From Holophagales bacterium (lineage in GTDB: Bacteria; Acidobacteriota; Thermoanaerobaculia; Multivoradales; Multivoraceae): a stretch of DNA of 64,000 bases. Below the pieces are notes generated by a model. The model saw only the letters and a list, made by a program, of their open reading frames with translations, did not search any database and was not told the DNA's origin. The position numbers and the translations under genes were made by a program. Position 1 is the first letter of the stretch; each line of letters opens with the position of its first letter. Below, one piece after another: positions 12,977-64,000 of this stretch. The stretch spans positions 256,073 to 320,072 of the forward strand of contig VXVC01000012.1 of NCBI GenBank assembly GCA_009836625.1, in the 5' to 3' direction.

Positions 12977-13882
12977 CTACTCGTTCTCCAACTGGCGGCG
13001 CATGTCGTCGAACATGGCCAGGTCGGCGAGCGACGGTTCCGGGTTGTGCAGGTCGAGGCTGGCGAGCCTGTCGCGCACGATGTCGGCGACCGCCCAGCGC
13101 ATGTACGGCTTGCTGTCGGCGGGAATCGCGTACCACGGCGCGTGGCTCCTGGTGGTGCCCCTGATCGCCTCGCCGTAGGCGCTCATGTACTCGTTCCAGA
13201 ACCCGCGTTCTCGGACGTCGCTGATGGCGAACTTCCAGTGCTTGTCCGGCCGGTCGAGACGCCGCAGGAAACGCGCCTTCTGTTCGTCGCGGGAGATGTT
13301 CAGGAAGAACTTGAGGATCACGGTGCCGTTGCGCGCCAGGTGCCGCTCGTGTTCGACGATCGACTCCATGCGTTGCTGCCACAGGCCGTTGGGGTCCACG
13401 TGGGGCAGGTTCTGCTTTTCCAGCAACTCGGGATGGACCCGTACGACGAGCACCTCTTCGTAGTAGCTGCGGTTGAACACGCCGATGCGGCCGCGCTCGG
13501 GCAGGCTGCGGGCGGTGCGCCACAGAAAGTCGTGATCGAGTTCTTCGCTTGAGGGTTGCTTGAAGTTGAACACCTGGCAGCCCGCCGGGTTGACGCCGGT
13601 GAGCAGGGCGTTGATCGTGCTGTCCTTGCCGGCGGCGTCCATCGCCTGGAAGACGAGCAGCAGCGCGTACCGGTTCTCGGCGTACAGCAACCGCTGCTGA
13701 CGGCTGATGTCGCGCACGGCGCGCCGGCGCAACTTGCGCAGTTCGTTGTGGCCGGGCGCGTCCGGCGGCGGCGCCGTGGCCCACTTTCGAGGATCGAATC
13801 GTTTCGTCCCCTCGGGAACCAGGTAACGCTGAGCCGGCTTCGCGGTCTCGTGGAGAACGCCTTCGGGGCCGTCTGTGGACAT
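12977..13882 (-). CDS. Polyphosphate kinase 2 family protein (polyphosphate:nucleotide phosphotransferase)
   Basis: FQAMDAAGKDSTI Walker A-like; RIGVFNRSYYEEVLVVRVHPE; SRDEQKARFLRRL: PPK2 signatures. Confidence 0.92.
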   Translation of the reverse strand: MSTDGPEGVLHETAKPAQRYLVPEGTKRFDPRKWATAPPPDAPGHNELRKLRRRAVRDISRQQRLLYAENRYALLLVFQAMDAAGKDSTINALLTGVNPAGCQVFNFKQPSSEELDHDFLWRTARSLPERGRIGVFNRSYYEEVLVVRVHPELLEKQNLPHVDPNGLWQQRMESIVEHERHLARNGTVILKFFLNISRDEQKARFLRRLDRPDKHWKFAISDVRERGFWNEYMSAYGEAIRGTTRSHAPWYAIPADSKPYMRWAVADIVRDRLASLDLHNPEPSLADLAMFDDMRRQLENE

Positions 13883-13923
13883 GAAGGGCTTAGGATACTC
13901 GCACGGATGAGCCGGGTCAGGAG

Positions 13924-15486
13924 ATGATCGCTACGAAGCGACCCCATCGACGGGAGTTCCTCAAGACCGTAGGGGCGGCGACGGTAGGCGTGGCCGTCGC
14001 GTGCAGCCTGCGCTCCGGACGGGATCTGGACCGCACGCCGAACGTCGTCTTCATCCTCGCCGACGACATGGGCTACGGCGACATCACCGGTCTGAACCGT
14101 GACTCGCAGATTCCGACCGCGAACATCGATCGCCTGATTCGCGAGGGCCGCTACTTCACCGACGCCCATTCGCCCTCGGCCCTTTGCACCCCGACCCGCT
14201 ATGGCGTGCTCACCGGCCGCTACTGCTTCCGTACGCGAGTGAAACGCAGCGTGCTCTGGGGCTACAGCCGCCACCTGATCGAACCCGAGCGCACGACGGT
14301 CGCTTCGCTTCTGAAGGAACGCGGCTACCGGACCCACTGCATCGGCAAGTGGCATCTGGGCATGGACATGCCGGCCCGGGGCGGCGGCGGATTCCGCGAT
14401 GCCGACGAGGTCGTTGACCAGCGTTCCTACACCGGCGACGTCGACTGGGCGGGCCGGATCGACAACGGGCCCGTTGCCAACGGCTTCGACACGTTCTACG
14501 GCATCTCGGCTTCGCTCGACATGCACCCCTACATCTACATTGAGAACGACCGTTTTCTGGGCGAGTGCACAGTCGAGGACGACCTGCTCTTCGTCACCGA
14601 AGACACCCGTGAAGAGCGCTACGGTGACAACCTCGGCCCGGCTCACGCCGACTTCCGCGCCGACGAAGTGATGCCGAAGCTGACCCGGCGGACCGTGGAG
14701 ACGATTGAGGCTCAGGACGCCGACGAGCCCTTCTTCGTGTTCCTCGGGCTCACTGCTCCCCACATCCCGATCGTGCCGTCGGAGAGGTTCCGCGGATTGA
14801 GCGAACTCGGGCCCTACGGCGACTTCTGTCTCGAGGTCGACGACACCGTGGGGCAGGTGCTGGATGCCCTCGACCGCAAGGGAATCACCGACGACACGCT
14901 GGTCATCTTCACCGCCGACAACGGGTGCGCGCCCTACATCGGGGTCGAGGAGATGAACGAGCAGGGGCACTACCCGAGCTACGTCTACCGGGGCTACAAG
15001 TCGGACATCTACGAGGGCGGCCACCGCATTCCGTTCGCCGCCCGCTGGCCGAGTCGGATCCCGGCGGGAACCCACTCCGACGAGATCATCTGCCTGACGG
15101 ACCTGCTCGCGACCTGCGCCGGCATCACCGGCACGAGGCTCGGAGAAGATGCCGGCGAAGACAGCTACGACATTCTCCCGGCGCTTCTCGGCGAACCTCT
15201 GTCCGCACCGATCCGTGAGGCGACCGTGTACCAGGCGGGCGACGGCTCGTACGCGATCCGGCAGGGCCGCTGGAAGCTGGAGGACACACCGAGCTCCGGC
15301 GGCTACTACCGCGTGTCACGCGAAGAGGCCCGCGAGGCCGGCCTGCCGGAGATCCAGCTCTACGATCTGTTCGCGGACATCGGGGAACGCACGAACGTCT
15401 ACGCCGAGCATCCCGACGTTGTGGAACATCTGACGGCCCTGCTCGAGAAGTACAAGCGCCAGGACCGCAGCGCACCCGTGCTGTAG
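13924..15486 (+). CDS. Arylsulfatase (Tat-exported)
   Basis: Tat-like RREFLKTVGAATVGVAVAC; NVVFILADDMGYGD; formylglycine motif CTPTRYGVLTGR; GKWHLG. Confidence 0.93.
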   Translation: MIATKRPHRREFLKTVGAATVGVAVACSLRSGRDLDRTPNVVFILADDMGYGDITGLNRDSQIPTANIDRLIREGRYFTDAHSPSALCTPTRYGVLTGRYCFRTRVKRSVLWGYSRHLIEPERTTVASLLKERGYRTHCIGKWHLGMDMPARGGGGFRDADEVVDQRSYTGDVDWAGRIDNGPVANGFDTFYGISASLDMHPYIYIENDRFLGECTVEDDLLFVTEDTREERYGDNLGPAHADFRADEVMPKLTRRTVETIEAQDADEPFFVFLGLTAPHIPIVPSERFRGLSELGPYGDFCLEVDDTVGQVLDALDRKGITDDTLVIFTADNGCAPYIGVEEMNEQGHYPSYVYRGYKSDIYEGGHRIPFAARWPSRIPAGTHSDEIICLTDLLATCAGITGTRLGEDAGEDSYDILPALLGEPLSAPIREATVYQAGDGSYAIRQGRWKLEDTPSSGGYYRVSREEAREAGLPEIQLYDLFADIGERTNVYAEHPDVVEHLTALLEKYKRQDRSAPVL

Positions 15487-59697: not shown

Positions 59698-61344
59698 TCA
59701 CTCTCCGGCGGCGGCTCCGGTGGCTTCAGTGGACGGCGCCCGCCCGGCGGGTTGGCCGACCATCTTCATCTCGAACGGCCGCTCGGTGTCGGCCCCCATC
59801 GTGATCGTGCCCTGGAGCGCCCCTTGCGCGTCGAGTTCCGCTTCGATCACCGTCGTGGTGGCTGACGCCTCGGGGGTGGGGAAGTGGGTCGTCACCCGCA
59901 GGCGGTCGCCGGACCAGGCGAAGTCGTCGAGGGTGATCGTGAACATCTGCAGACCGGATGCCACGTAGAGGATGCCCTCGCCCTCGCGGGGCGTCCAGAA
60001 AGCGATCGGCAGGAACCCGTCGGCCAGGAAGGAGGTCCCCCGTGGATGCCGGGCGATCAGCTTCGTCAGCTTGTCGACGTTGTCCTTCGGCCGGTGGTAG
60101 CCGCCGTCCTTGCGGACGATCTCCATGAAGCCGACGAACATCTCGTTGACCACGTCGCCACGGTAGATGATCTCGCGGGTCGGATCGGGGTTGGCCGGGT
60201 TGCTCTCCGAGTTGTCCCAGACCGCCGTGACCTCGATCCGGCTCGAGGCCGGCAGGTCGATCGGCTCGGTGGGGTAGTAGAGCCACTGCCAGTTGTAGTC
60301 GTACTTCGGCACGTCGAGCAGGGTCTCGCTGCTTCCGTCCGCGTGGAGGATGCGGTAGGTCATCGCCTTGCCCCGAACGTGCATGTGGGGGCTGAAGGCG
60401 AGGATCTGCATGTCGTCGTCGGGCTGAAAGAATCCCTCCTCGGCGTGGTGACCGGCGCCCGGCGGAATCCGGATGCCGGTGTTGGCGACCGAGACGGTCG
60501 CCACTTCACGCTCCAGTTCGCCCTTGCCGAAGTAGATCCCGATACGGGTGACGTCCGATGTCGCTTCGCCGAACGGGTGGTAGTGGGAGTCCATCGTGAT
60601 CGTCGTGCCCGGGCCCAGAACCCGGCCGGTGCCCTCGGGGAAGACGTAGGGCGGCATGCCCGCGGTCCAGATCCCGAACACGCCGCTGCCCCCGGCACCC
60701 TCGCTCACCCTCTCGCCTGAGCCGATCGGGCCACCGCTCTCGCGCCGCGGTGTCGTGTACGTGGCCTGGAAGTGGTGCGTGGCTCTGCGGTCGCCGGGGA
60801 GGAACTCGATCGCCTGTACCCATCGTTCCTCCTCCAGCTCGAGCGCGATGCGCTGCTTGGGGAAGAGATCCGGGCCTTCCGCCGGCACCTCGATGCGGTC
60901 GAGCGTCAGCACGTAGTCCGGTTCGCCCAGCGTCCAGCCCTCGGGGAAGGTCGGCGCCGGCGGCAGGTCGGCGGGATCGCCCTCGGGCGCGCCGCCCGTG
61001 GCCCAGCCCGCGATCGTTGCGATCTGTTCGGCGGAGAGGGAGAGGTCATTACGGAACACGACGTGCTCCGACTCGGCGCTCCAGGGCGGCATATCGCCGT
61101 TCTCGACCGCCCGCGCCATGCCGCGTGCCCAGGGGCGGGCCTCCCGGTAGGAGAGCAGCGACATCGGCGCCGCCTGGTTCGGGCGATGACACTGGACGCA
61201 CTTCTCGAACAGGATGGGCGCCACGTCGCGGCTGAAGGTCGGCGGGTCGGCCGCGCCGGCTGCCGTCGCTGTGAGCAGGACGGTGCTGGCGACCAACGCC
61301 GCGAGCGTGTATGGGTGGCGGCGGATAGGGGATCTCGTGAGCAT
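59698..61344 (-). CDS. c-type cytochrome fused to copper type II monooxygenase-like domain (paralog of 48444-49766)
   Basis: FSRDVAPILFEKCVQCHRPNQAAPMSLLSY; ATHHFQATY; FSPHMHVRGKAMTYRI. Confidence 0.86.
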   Translation of the reverse strand: MLTRSPIRRHPYTLAALVASTVLLTATAAGAADPPTFSRDVAPILFEKCVQCHRPNQAAPMSLLSYREARPWARGMARAVENGDMPPWSAESEHVVFRNDLSLSAEQIATIAGWATGGAPEGDPADLPPAPTFPEGWTLGEPDYVLTLDRIEVPAEGPDLFPKQRIALELEEERWVQAIEFLPGDRRATHHFQATYTTPRRESGGPIGSGERVSEGAGGSGVFGIWTAGMPPYVFPEGTGRVLGPGTTITMDSHYHPFGEATSDVTRIGIYFGKGELEREVATVSVANTGIRIPPGAGHHAEEGFFQPDDDMQILAFSPHMHVRGKAMTYRILHADGSSETLLDVPKYDYNWQWLYYPTEPIDLPASSRIEVTAVWDNSESNPANPDPTREIIYRGDVVNEMFVGFMEIVRKDGGYHRPKDNVDKLTKLIARHPRGTSFLADGFLPIAFWTPREGEGILYVASGLQMFTITLDDFAWSGDRLRVTTHFPTPEASATTTVIEAELDAQGALQGTITMGADTERPFEMKMVGQPAGRAPSTEATGAAAGE

Positions 61345-61471
61345 GTTCGTCCCTGAACTGATGGGTTTGGCGATTGCGTTCAGTCTAACAAGCGGCGGGC
61401 TGAGGTTCGTTCGTGCGGTAGGCTCGATGGCGCTTCCCCAAGGTACGTGGAGACGAATCGGAGGACACTCC

Positions 61472-62554
61472 ATGCGCATCGATCGAGCCGCCCTGGCTAT
61501 CTGTCTGTTCGCCGTTGCGGCGATGCTGATCGCGGCCCCTGCCGTGGTGGCGGGTGAAGAGGACATCCCGCGCACCGCCAGCGGCAAGCCCGACCTGACG
61601 GGTCGCTACAACATCGCGAGCTCGACGCCGTTCGAACGGCCGTCGGAGTTCGGCGACGAACTCTTTCTCACCGTCGAGGAAGCGGAAGAGATCATGGAGC
61701 GGACCCGCGCGGCGGTGGCCAGGTCCAACGCCGCCAGCGATCCGGAGCGGTCCGCGCCCCCGGCCGGCGGCGACGGCTCTCCCGGCGCCGCCGGCGCGGT
61801 CGGCGGCTACAACTCGTTCTGGACCGACCGCGGGAGCGACCGCTTCGCCATCGACGGGAAGTTCCGTACCTCCATCCTGACCGATCCGCCGAACGGCCGC
61901 ATGCCGTCGCTCTCCGAGGCGGGGAAGGCTCGCCGTGCCGACTTGCATCCGTACGCCTACGAGAACACCGGCAGCGCCTGGTGGCTCGAGACCGGCGACG
62001 ACCCGTACGACGGCCCGGAGACACTGTCGGTCCTCGATCGCTGCCTGTACCTGGGAGCGGCGGCGACTCCGGCTCGCCCGATTCTCTACAACAACCTGAA
62101 GACCATCACGCAGACCGAGGACCACGTGGTCATCCTGGTCGAGTGGATGCACTGGGCCAAGGTCGTGCGGCTGAACGCGGAGCACGCGCCGCCGGAGGTG
62201 CGTTCGCTGGGCGGCGACCCGATCGGCTGGTGGGAAGGCGACACCCTGGTGGTCGAGACGACGAACTTCCTCGAGCGGCCGGGCGTTGCGCGCGAGGGTC
62301 TGAAGGTAGTCGAGCGCTTTACCCGCCAGAGCGCGGACGGGCTCCTGTACGAGTTCACGGTGCACGACCCGGACTACACGGCACCCTACGGTGGCGAGTT
62401 TCTCTGGCCGCAGACGGAGGAACTGAACTACGAGTACGCCTGCCACGAGGGCAACTACGCGATGGGCAACATCCTTCGGGGCGCGCGACTGCTCGAGCGG
62501 GAGTACCTCGAGCAGAAGGGTCAGGCGGGCAGCACCGGCTCGGGGGACGAGTAG
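61472..62554 (+). CDS. Secreted protein of unknown function ('CHEGN' family; paralog of 46690-47688)
   Basis: Signal peptide; GWWEGDTLVVETTNF; LNYEYACHEGNYAMGNILRGARLLERE. Confidence 0.82.
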   Translation: MRIDRAALAICLFAVAAMLIAAPAVVAGEEDIPRTASGKPDLTGRYNIASSTPFERPSEFGDELFLTVEEAEEIMERTRAAVARSNAASDPERSAPPAGGDGSPGAAGAVGGYNSFWTDRGSDRFAIDGKFRTSILTDPPNGRMPSLSEAGKARRADLHPYAYENTGSAWWLETGDDPYDGPETLSVLDRCLYLGAAATPARPILYNNLKTITQTEDHVVILVEWMHWAKVVRLNAEHAPPEVRSLGGDPIGWWEGDTLVVETTNFLERPGVAREGLKVVERFTRQSADGLLYEFTVHDPDYTAPYGGEFLWPQTEELNYEYACHEGNYAMGNILRGARLLEREYLEQKGQAGSTGSGDE

Positions 62555-62572: not shown

Positions 62573-64000
62573 ATGGGAACGTTCTCCTACGCGGCCTGGG
62601 ACCGCCTGCTGGCCGAGGTCGTCGCGGAGGACGGCAAGGTCGACTACGAGCGTCTCGCCGCGCGGCGGCCGCTGCTGGAGGAGTTCATAGCCGAACTCGG
62701 CGAAACGTCGCCGGAAAGCCGCCCGGACCTCTTCCCGAGCGAGGAGGACGGGCTCGCCTACTGGATCAACGCTTACAACGCGTTCACCCTGCACGCGATC
62801 GCTGAGGAGTACCCGATCCGGTCGGTCTGGAAGACGCGCGACGGGCAGTTCTTCCAGCGGCGGCGGCACATCGCCGGCGGTTCGGCGGCCAGCCTCGACG
62901 ATATCGAGCACCAGATCCTCCGATCGGACTACGCCGAGCCGCGCATCCACTTCGCGATCAACTGCGGCGCGAACGGTTGCCCGGCGGTGCGTCCCTCGGC
63001 GTACCGGGGAGAGGGTCTGCGCGACACGCTGCGTGAAGCGGCCGGGGCGTTCCTCGCGAATCGCTGGAACTGCCGTGTCGACCACGAAGCGGAGCGGATC
63101 CACGTTTCCCGCATCTTCCGGATGTACGCGGAGGACTTCGCCGGCGGAGCGGGTACGCGCGAGGAGTACCGGCGCGGCGTCCTGAGCTTCGTGGCCGAGC
63201 ACGCGGGGCTGGAACTCGAGCAGATCGCTGGCTACGAGCTCGTCTACAACACGTACGACTGGGGTCTCAACGACACGCACCGCGATCCGAACATCGGCCC
63301 AATCACGTTTCACGAGCCCGTGGAGCACTTCTCCGAGGCCGACGGCGAACTCCGCGAGCTCCATCTCTACGAGGGCAACTTCTGCAACCGGGCGTGTTCC
63401 TGGTGCACGATCAACGGCTCGCCCGAGGGCTGGTACGAGCGCTACACGCCGGAGGTGCTGGACCAGGCGCTCAGTTCCCTCGCCGCGGACGGCAACCTGA
63501 AGTTCTACGGTGGCGAGCCGACCCTGCACACGCGGGAGATCGCCGGCGCCATGCGCTATGTCCGGGAGCGTGGTTTCACCGGTCTGATTACCGTGTTCTC
63601 GAACGGCATCCAGGCGGAGAAGCTGATCTCGATCCTCGAGTCGGACCCGAAGAGCGAGGCGGTGCTCAACTACTCGATCTACCACGGCAGGGACGCCGAT
63701 CCGATGCCGGCCTACGCGCGCGAGCGCCTGGAGGACTGGGCCCGCGCGAACCCGAACCGCATCTTCCAGGGCTACAAGGTGCTGTTCCACGCCGGCGCCG
63801 GCGCCGACCAGGAGTTTGCCCGCGACCGGGAGTCGGAGTACCACGGCATGGGCAATCGCTGCGTCCGCTGTTTTCCCGTGCTGACCACGAAGGGCCGGTT
63901 CCACGCCTGTCCGTTCGCCGCCGAGATCGAGTCGCCCCACTTCGACCTAGGCGCCGTCGGCTCGGATTCCGGCACCGTCTTCGAGAACTACCGGACGTTC
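62573..64000 (+). CDS. DUF547 domain fused to radical SAM domain protein (truncated by right edge)
   Basis: Manual translation from ATG 62573: MGTFSYAAWDRLLAEVVAEDGKVDYERL...YWINAYNAFTLHAI...RIHFAINCGANGCPAVRP...LHLYEGNFCNRACSWCTINGSPEG...LKFYGGEPTLH; open to 64000, so absent from the ORF track. Confidence 0.85.
   Translation, partial: MGTFSYAAWDRLLAEVVAEDGKVDYERLAARRPLLEEFIAELGETSPESRPDLFPSEEDGLAYWINAYNAFTLHAIAEEYPIRSVWKTRDGQFFQRRRHIAGGSAASLDDIEHQILRSDYAEPRIHFAINCGANGCPAVRPSAYRGEGLRDTLREAAGAFLANRWNCRVDHEAERIHVSRIFRMYAEDFAGGAGTREEYRRGVLSFVAEHAGLELEQIAGYELVYNTYDWGLNDTHRDPNIGPITFHEPVEHFSEADGELRELHLYEGNFCNRACSWCTINGSPEGWYERYTPEVLDQALSSLAADGNLKFYGGEPTLHTREIAGAMRYVRERGFTGLITVFSNGIQAEKLISILESDPKSEAVLNYSIYHGRDADPMPAYARERLEDWARANPNRIFQGYKVLFHAGAGADQEFARDRESEYHGMGNRCVRCFPVLTTKGRFHACPFAAEIESPHFDLGAVGSDSGTVFENYRTF

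What the first reader, a model, noticed from the sequence alone, without database searches (positions are those of the whole stretch)
62573..64000. DUF547 domain fused to a radical SAM enzyme, cut by the window edge
Seen in sequence: a continuous frame gives a DUF547-like domain (LAYWINAYNAFTLHAI...HFAINCGANGCPAVRP) followed by a radical SAM domain (NFCNRACSWCTINGS, CxxxCxxC; KFYGGEPTLH) and a later Cys cluster (GNRCVRCFPVLTTKGRFHACPF) suggestive of auxiliary Fe-S/SPASM-like binding. Established knowledge: DUF547 is typically a stand-alone secreted or membrane-associated domain, and its fusion to a cytosolic radical SAM enzyme is unexpected. Inference: a peptide- or thiol-modifying enzyme with DUF547 as substrate-recognition or transfer domain.
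Basis: partly seen in the sequence, partly recalled or inferred. Interest (0 to 1): 0.65.

Follow-up and report, generated by a model that had tools for sequence, protein, structure and literature searches.

The report
DUF547–radical SAM fusion enzyme
A bacterial gene at the window's edge makes one protein that joins a domain of unknown function (DUF547) to a radical-forming iron-sulfur enzyme; the join is genuine, conserved in two distant bacterial groups and apparently undescribed, and it gives a first testable hint at what DUF547 does.

Summary
The gene (window 62573 to 64129, read past the edge) encodes one 518-aa protein: DUF547 (Pfam 91 bits), then a short conserved linker, then a radical SAM core (30 bits, just over cut-off) and a C-terminal four-cysteine pattern typical of a Twitch domain (one auxiliary Fe-S cluster), not a full SPASM domain. 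It is not a frameshift or a two-gene artefact. The fused frame recurs in 19 of 21 sampled genomes of its genus (Candidatus Multivorans, Acidobacteriota) and, at 68% identity without gaps, in a deltaproteobacterial genome with different neighbours. No close relative of the radical SAM half was found without DUF547. Both halves are under strong purifying selection.

The DUF547 half keeps every residue that is invariant in 17 stand-alone homologues but lacks their signal-peptide-like N-terminus, so it is probably a working domain in the cytosol. DUF547 next to radical SAM is less odd than supposed: stand-alone DUF547 genes of this phylum recur beside arsenic radical SAM genes (ArsS), 7 of 64 loci within 3 kb.

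Best guess: a self-contained two-step small-molecule tailoring enzyme. Substrate and reaction are unknown; no conserved precursor peptide or partner was found. New architecture of a known superfamily; moderate interest.

The parts
62573..64000 (+). DUF547-radical SAM-Twitch fusion gene, part inside the window (476 of 518 codons; stop at window-equivalent 64129)
   Evidence: G000:C10:318645-320201
62582..63292 (+). N-terminal DUF547 module, aa 4-240 (Pfam core aa 56-161)
   Evidence: PF04784 E 6e-26; aligns end to end with stand-alone DUF547 proteins at about 32-40% identity
62948..62983 (+). H126-X4-C131-X4-C136-P137: H126 and C136 invariant across the sampled family, C131 and P137 nearly so; candidate active or metal site
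   Evidence: role inferred
63293..63358 (+). Linker aa 241-262 between the two domains, strongly conserved
   Evidence: dN/dS about 0.03; no start codon shared by all copies
63359..63772 (+). Radical SAM core aa 263-400, with CX3CX(W)C at aa 271-278 (63383-63406) and GGEP at aa 313-316
   Evidence: PF04055 30.4 bits against cut-off 29.5; motif invariant in 25 copies
63773..64000 (+). Twitch-like region from aa 401: C430, C433, G441, C446 inside the window; C496 and C499 beyond it
61472..62554 (+). Upstream neighbour (same strand, 18 bases before the fusion): secreted protein of about 360 aa without a Pfam family; ORF listed from 61214, start near 61472 inferred. Conserved neighbour in the genus, not in the distant relative

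Best explanation
A single-chain cytosolic enzyme with two catalytic modules. Shown: one continuous conserved polypeptide, DUF547 then a radical SAM core then a Twitch-like cysteine pattern. Inferred from the superfamily: the CX3CXWC cluster cleaves S-adenosylmethionine to a 5'-deoxyadenosyl radical that takes a hydrogen atom from the substrate, and the Twitch cluster (C430, C446, C496, C499, with C433 spare) accepts the electron or holds the substrate, as proposed for BtrN and MoaA. Inferred from conservation: the DUF547 module, with intact H126, C136, E112 and D188, carries out a second step on the same substrate or product, probably thiol- or metal-dependent; fusion keeps the two steps together and moves an otherwise exported domain into the cytosol. 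Most likely substrate: a small molecule (sugar, nucleoside or amino-acid derivative) rather than a ribosomal peptide. The identity of substrate and product is not determined.
For: Fusion in one frame in 17 of 17 loci of a collection scan; radical SAM half in 19 of 21 genomes of the genus. 68% identity without gaps over 506 aa to L080 from another phylum, where the neighbouring genes differ. All 14 DUF547-invariant residues kept. Radical SAM and Twitch cysteines invariant in 25 copies. dN/dS about 0.16 (DUF547), 0.12 (rSAM core), 0.13 (Twitch), 0.03 (linker). No signal-peptide-like N-terminus, unlike 17 stand-alone homologues. No constant partner gene: neighbours differ in L080 and the genus's downstream gene persists without the fusion in G176, consistent with a self-sufficient enzyme. 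Stand-alone DUF547 genes recur beside radical SAM genes that make small organo-arsenicals.
Against: No activity, substrate or cluster content is known. DUF547 has no solved structure by sequence and its model (pLDDT 73) matched nothing in the PDB or BFVD, so its catalytic role is only inferred. The full-length model is poor (pLDDT 59). The small-molecule preference rests mainly on the absence of a peptide gene nearby, which does not exclude one elsewhere.
Confidence: 0.35

Rival explanations
1. A peptide (RiPP) maturase: the radical SAM-Twitch part modifies a ribosomal peptide and the N-terminal DUF547 module binds, cleaves or transfers it, in the position where SkfB carries its RiPP recognition element.
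For: Modular N-domain-rSAM-Twitch layout like SkfB (PMC6231123); best weak NCBIfam hits include the peptide maturases HxsC and PapB; best though non-significant Foldseek hit is the peptide epimerase EpeE.
Against: All hits are far below cut-off (22 of 268 bits for HxsC) and cover only the radical SAM core. No conserved small ORF beside the gene in the genus or in L080: 18 bases to the upstream gene and an overlap or near-overlap downstream in the genus. DUF547 is about 240 aa with conserved Cys/His, unlike a small RRE.
Confidence: 0.2
2. A protein-modifying enzyme (anaerobic-maturase-like) that acts on a residue of a secreted or membrane protein, for example the conserved neighbours (secreted 360-aa protein, GT-C-like membrane protein).
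For: The two neighbours flank the gene in nearly all loci of the genus, same strand, with tight spacing.
Against: Neither neighbour is near the fusion in L080; both persist in G176 without the fusion.
Confidence: 0.12
3. Organo-arsenic (or selenium) chemistry: a departure from the ArsS-type gene pairs in which a radical SAM enzyme and DUF547 act on the same arsenical.
For: 7 of 64 ArsS loci of the phylum have a DUF547 gene within 3 kb, well above a rough background; three further DUF547 loci lie by PqqD-rSAM-ArsM, MerA-like and TIGR04282/04283 genes. The two sampled genomes of the genus without the fusion both have ArsS.
Against: The fusion itself is in no arsenic cluster and its genome has no ArsS above cut-off. 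Its radical SAM half resembles ArsS only across the core (74 columns). The anticorrelation rests on few, related genomes, and G207 has both.
Confidence: 0.12
4. A viperin-like antiviral nucleotide synthase with an extra domain.
For: Weak matches to viperin models (padloc 1.6e-5; NCBIfam 19 of 180 bits).
Against: The match covers only about 80 residues of the radical SAM core; no defence genes seen beside it; MoaA and HxsC match as well.
Confidence: 0.03
5. Artefact: two adjacent genes read as one through a sequencing or assembly error.
For: Metagenome-assembled genomes; the window itself cuts the gene.
Against: The same continuous frame in well over a dozen separately assembled genomes and in another phylum; linker under the strongest purifying selection.
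Confidence: 0.01

Closest known systems
Stand-alone DUF547 proteins (Pfam PF04784)
   Same: N-terminal 240 aa align end to end, about 32-40% identity, all 14 invariant residues kept
   Different: Stand-alone forms carry signal-peptide-like N-termini and no radical SAM domain; the fusion is cytosolic-looking and fused
Radical SAM-Twitch enzymes (BtrN, MoaA, SkfB)
   Same: CX3CX(aromatic)C core motif and C-X9-15-G-X4-C-gap-C-X2-C auxiliary pattern
   Different: No family-level similarity outside the radical SAM core; N-terminal DUF547 instead of an RRE or nothing; an extra C433
ArsS (TIGR04167) with a neighbouring DUF547 gene in arsenosugar-type clusters of Acidobacteriota
   Same: A radical SAM enzyme paired with DUF547, there as separate adjacent genes
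   Different: The fusion's radical SAM half is not ArsS (13 of 300 bits) and has no arsenic genes around it
PqqD-radical SAM/SPASM-ArsM fusions beside DUF547 (L112, L113, L114)
   Same: Radical SAM next to DUF547; profile similarity over 85 columns of the core
   Different: SPASM-type enzyme with a methyltransferase; DUF547 is a separate exported-looking protein there

Membership tests
Radical SAM superfamily (PF04055) | CX3CX(aromatic)C cluster motif and score over the Pfam cut-off | tested here: met
   30.4 bits against 29.5 for this gene; L080 scores 24.0, below the cut-off; motif in 25 of 25
Radical SAM superfamily (PF04055) | Reductive cleavage of S-adenosylmethionine by a [4Fe-4S] cluster | not testable with these tools
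   needs anaerobic biochemistry
Twitch-domain subgroup | First four cysteines of the SPASM motif, C-X9-15-G-X4-C-gap-C-X2-C, C-terminal to the core | tested here: met
   C430-X10-G441-X4-C446-X49-C496-X2-C499 in 25 of 25 (motif from PMC6231123)
SPASM domain (two auxiliary clusters) | Seven-cysteine motif with C-X2-C-X5-C-X3-C-gap-C | tested here: not met
   sequence ends about 19 residues after C499 with no further cysteine
DUF547 (PF04784) | Score over the Pfam cut-off and family-invariant residues | tested here: met
   91.2 bits against 27; 14 of 14 invariant residues
ArsS (TIGR04167) | NCBIfam equivalog cut-off of 300 bits | tested here: not met
   13.2 bits
RiPP maturases (HxsC, PapB and others) | Family cut-off and a linked precursor gene | tested here: not met
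   at most about 22 bits for the first member against 268-340; no conserved small ORF beside the gene
Prokaryotic viperins | NCBIfam cut-off of 180 bits | tested here: not met
   about 19 bits, core only

The most novel reading that the evidence does not exclude
DUF547 is a catalytic partner domain of radical SAM chemistry: here the two form one bifunctional cytosolic enzyme for an unknown small molecule, and in ArsS-type clusters the same pairing works through separate proteins. The fusion would then give the first function for a family found from bacteria to plants.
Probability: 0.2. Interest if true: 0.75.

Novelty: new variant of a known kind. Interest (0 to 1): 0.48.

Why it matters
DUF547 occurs in bacteria and plants, has no known function, and no solved structure was found by sequence. 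A conserved natural fusion to a radical SAM-Twitch enzyme, together with the recurrent DUF547-ArsS gene pairing found here, ties it to a kind of chemistry and makes its function testable in one purified protein. It also adds an architecture to the radical SAM superfamily for which no paper was found in the library at hand.

Tried and rejected
Frameshift or two-gene artefact: rejected. Full SPASM: rejected by the cysteine count. Mobile or viral origin: no relative in viral contigs and no fusion in plasmids (61 records with a partial match at most, the best ones DUF547 only). Partner gene by operon: the GT-C-like gene (PMT_2, below Pfam cut-off) follows the fusion closely in the genus but is not beside it in L080 and persists without it in G176. 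Precursor peptide: none conserved; the many weak small-ORF matches are composition noise at inconsistent places. AlphaFold2 of the whole fusion was poor and its Foldseek hits (EpeE, viperin, PFL-activase) were not significant; DUF547 alone folded moderately but matched nothing. ArsS or viperin membership: rejected by score.

Full report
What is there. The window ends inside a gene. The window lies at G000:C10:256073-320072; reading on gives one frame of 518 codons, L003:4646-6202, window 62573 to the equivalent of 64129. Pfam finds DUF547 at aa 56-161 (91.2 bits, cut-off 27) and Radical_SAM at aa 269-349 (30.4 bits, cut-off 29.5). No NCBIfam family comes near its cut-off.

Is the fusion real? 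Twelve genomes of the genus, this one included, carry it over the full length, the others at 90-96% identity. A scan of GTDB genomes with the radical SAM half returned 17 loci, all of them the fusion in one frame, one cut by its contig end. Sixteen are MAGs of the genus or close to it, one named Candidatus Multivorans thiocomprendens (taxonomy: Acidobacteriota, Thermoanaerobaculia). The seventeenth, L080, is titled Deltaproteobacteria bacterium; it aligns without gaps at 68% over 506 aa. In the order, 19 of 21 genomes of the genus have the radical SAM half and no genome outside the genus has more than a marginal hit to a short stretch. In 396 genomes of the phylum no other fusion appeared, nor in 345 genomes of L080's phylum apart from L080 itself. 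The collection scan used only two short peptide patterns, so more distant fusions could be missed. dN/dS within the genus is about 0.13 overall and 0.03 in the linker. There is no start codon in the linker shared by all copies.

Anatomy. The radical SAM motif is CNR(A/T/D)C(S/A)WC. The later cysteines are C430, C433, C446, C496 and C499, with G441 five residues before C446, identical in spacing in 25 copies. [quoted passage not shown] The DUF547 half aligns along its whole length with stand-alone DUF547 proteins at about 32-40% identity. All 14 columns invariant over 17 stand-alone proteins and two fusions are kept (Y25 Y68 N69 G103 E112 R117 H126 C136 L153 S179 F182 D188 Y228 N233), with C131 nearly invariant. 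H126-X4-C131-X4-C136-P is a candidate active or metal site (inference). The 17 stand-alone proteins have a longer N-terminus, hydrophobic in those read in full (judged by eye); the fusion starts a few residues before the domain. A cytosolic location is therefore inferred, as radical SAM chemistry requires.

Surroundings. In the genus the gene sits between a secreted protein of about 360 aa without a Pfam family and a GT-C-like membrane protein (PMT_2, 23.4 bits, below its cut-off of 26.1), with very short spacing. L080 has different neighbours: an alpha/beta hydrolase upstream and an ORF with an AhpC/TSA redoxin start downstream. In G176, a complete genome of the genus, the fusion is missing at that spot, other DNA stands in its place and both neighbours remain. 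So no partner gene is constant. No conserved small ORF was found.

A link between DUF547 and radical SAM outside the fusion. Three stand-alone DUF547 genes lay by PqqD-radical SAM/SPASM-ArsM proteins, MerA-like oxidoreductases and, in part, TIGR04282 or TIGR04283 glycosyltransferases. Three more lay by ArsS-type radical SAM and ArsM genes. Searching the phylum for ArsS (TIGR04167) gave matches over cut-off in 66 of 396 genomes. Around 64 of these genes, DUF547 lies within 3 kb in 7 and elsewhere in the fetched DNA once. With a guessed background of 0.5-1.5 DUF547 genes per Mb, 0.2-0.7 are expected near ArsS; against the farther flanks of the same loci the excess is weaker (binomial P 0.03). 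The fusion's own radical SAM half is not ArsS (13 of 300 bits; core-only profile match) and its genome has no ArsS above cut-off. The pairing is a lead on DUF547, not proof of arsenic chemistry here.

How it probably works. Shown: one conserved protein with three recognisable parts and intact motifs. From family knowledge: the radical SAM cluster makes a 5'-deoxyadenosyl radical; in BtrN the Twitch cluster is proposed to take up an electron and in MoaA it binds the substrate (PMC9012708). Inference: DUF547 performs a second step, and fusion couples the steps. A small-molecule substrate is favoured because there is no adjacent peptide, no constant partner gene, and the phylum's DUF547-radical SAM gene pairs belong to small-molecule arsenic metabolism. 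Confidence in this mechanism is 0.35; confidence that the fusion is real is above 0.95.

Structure. The whole-protein model is weak (pLDDT 59); its Foldseek hits, EpeE first, do not reach significance. DUF547 alone gives pLDDT 73 and pTM 0.76 with no PDB or viral match, and no solved relative was found by sequence. The fold of DUF547 remains open.

Known or new? No paper in the library holds both DUF547 and radical SAM, and none of the 21 papers naming DUF547 has it in its title or abstract. Subscription journals are mostly not in that library. It is a new architecture of a known superfamily, restricted as far as seen to one genus plus one distant genome, which suggests horizontal transfer (inference).

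Noticed in passing
window 61214-62554; L003:9136-10128, 13360-14175, 14109-15257: At least four similar secreted proteins (..SGKPDLTGRY..TPFERP.. type) cluster around the fusion with no Pfam hit in those scanned; a lineage-expanded family of unknown function.
   Followed up: partly
L112:9675-12191, L114:9778-12462, also L113: Three-domain PqqD-radical SAM/SPASM-ArsM proteins (838-894 aa) beside MerA-like, DUF547 and TIGR04282 or TIGR04283 genes: an arsenic-type cluster that no NCBIfam equivalog cut-off names.
   Followed up: partly
G176, G334, G207 (same genus): These genomes carry ArsS about 10 kb from their second DUF547 gene; G176 and G334 are the two sampled genomes of the genus without the fusion, while G207 has both.
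   Followed up: partly
L004:10379-12522 (G000:C3 near 1294585): The genome's second DUF547 gene, lipoprotein-like, lies next to a polytopic membrane protein resembling a GT-C glycosyltransferase (no Pfam hit); the fusion also has a GT-C-like neighbour.
   Followed up: no
L184 (G176:C1:1516000-1530000): At the fusion's position G176 has about 4 kb of unrelated DNA encoding a 497-aa ORF without a Pfam hit and a carboxypeptidase-regulatory-domain protein, with both flanks kept: a variable slot.
   Followed up: partly
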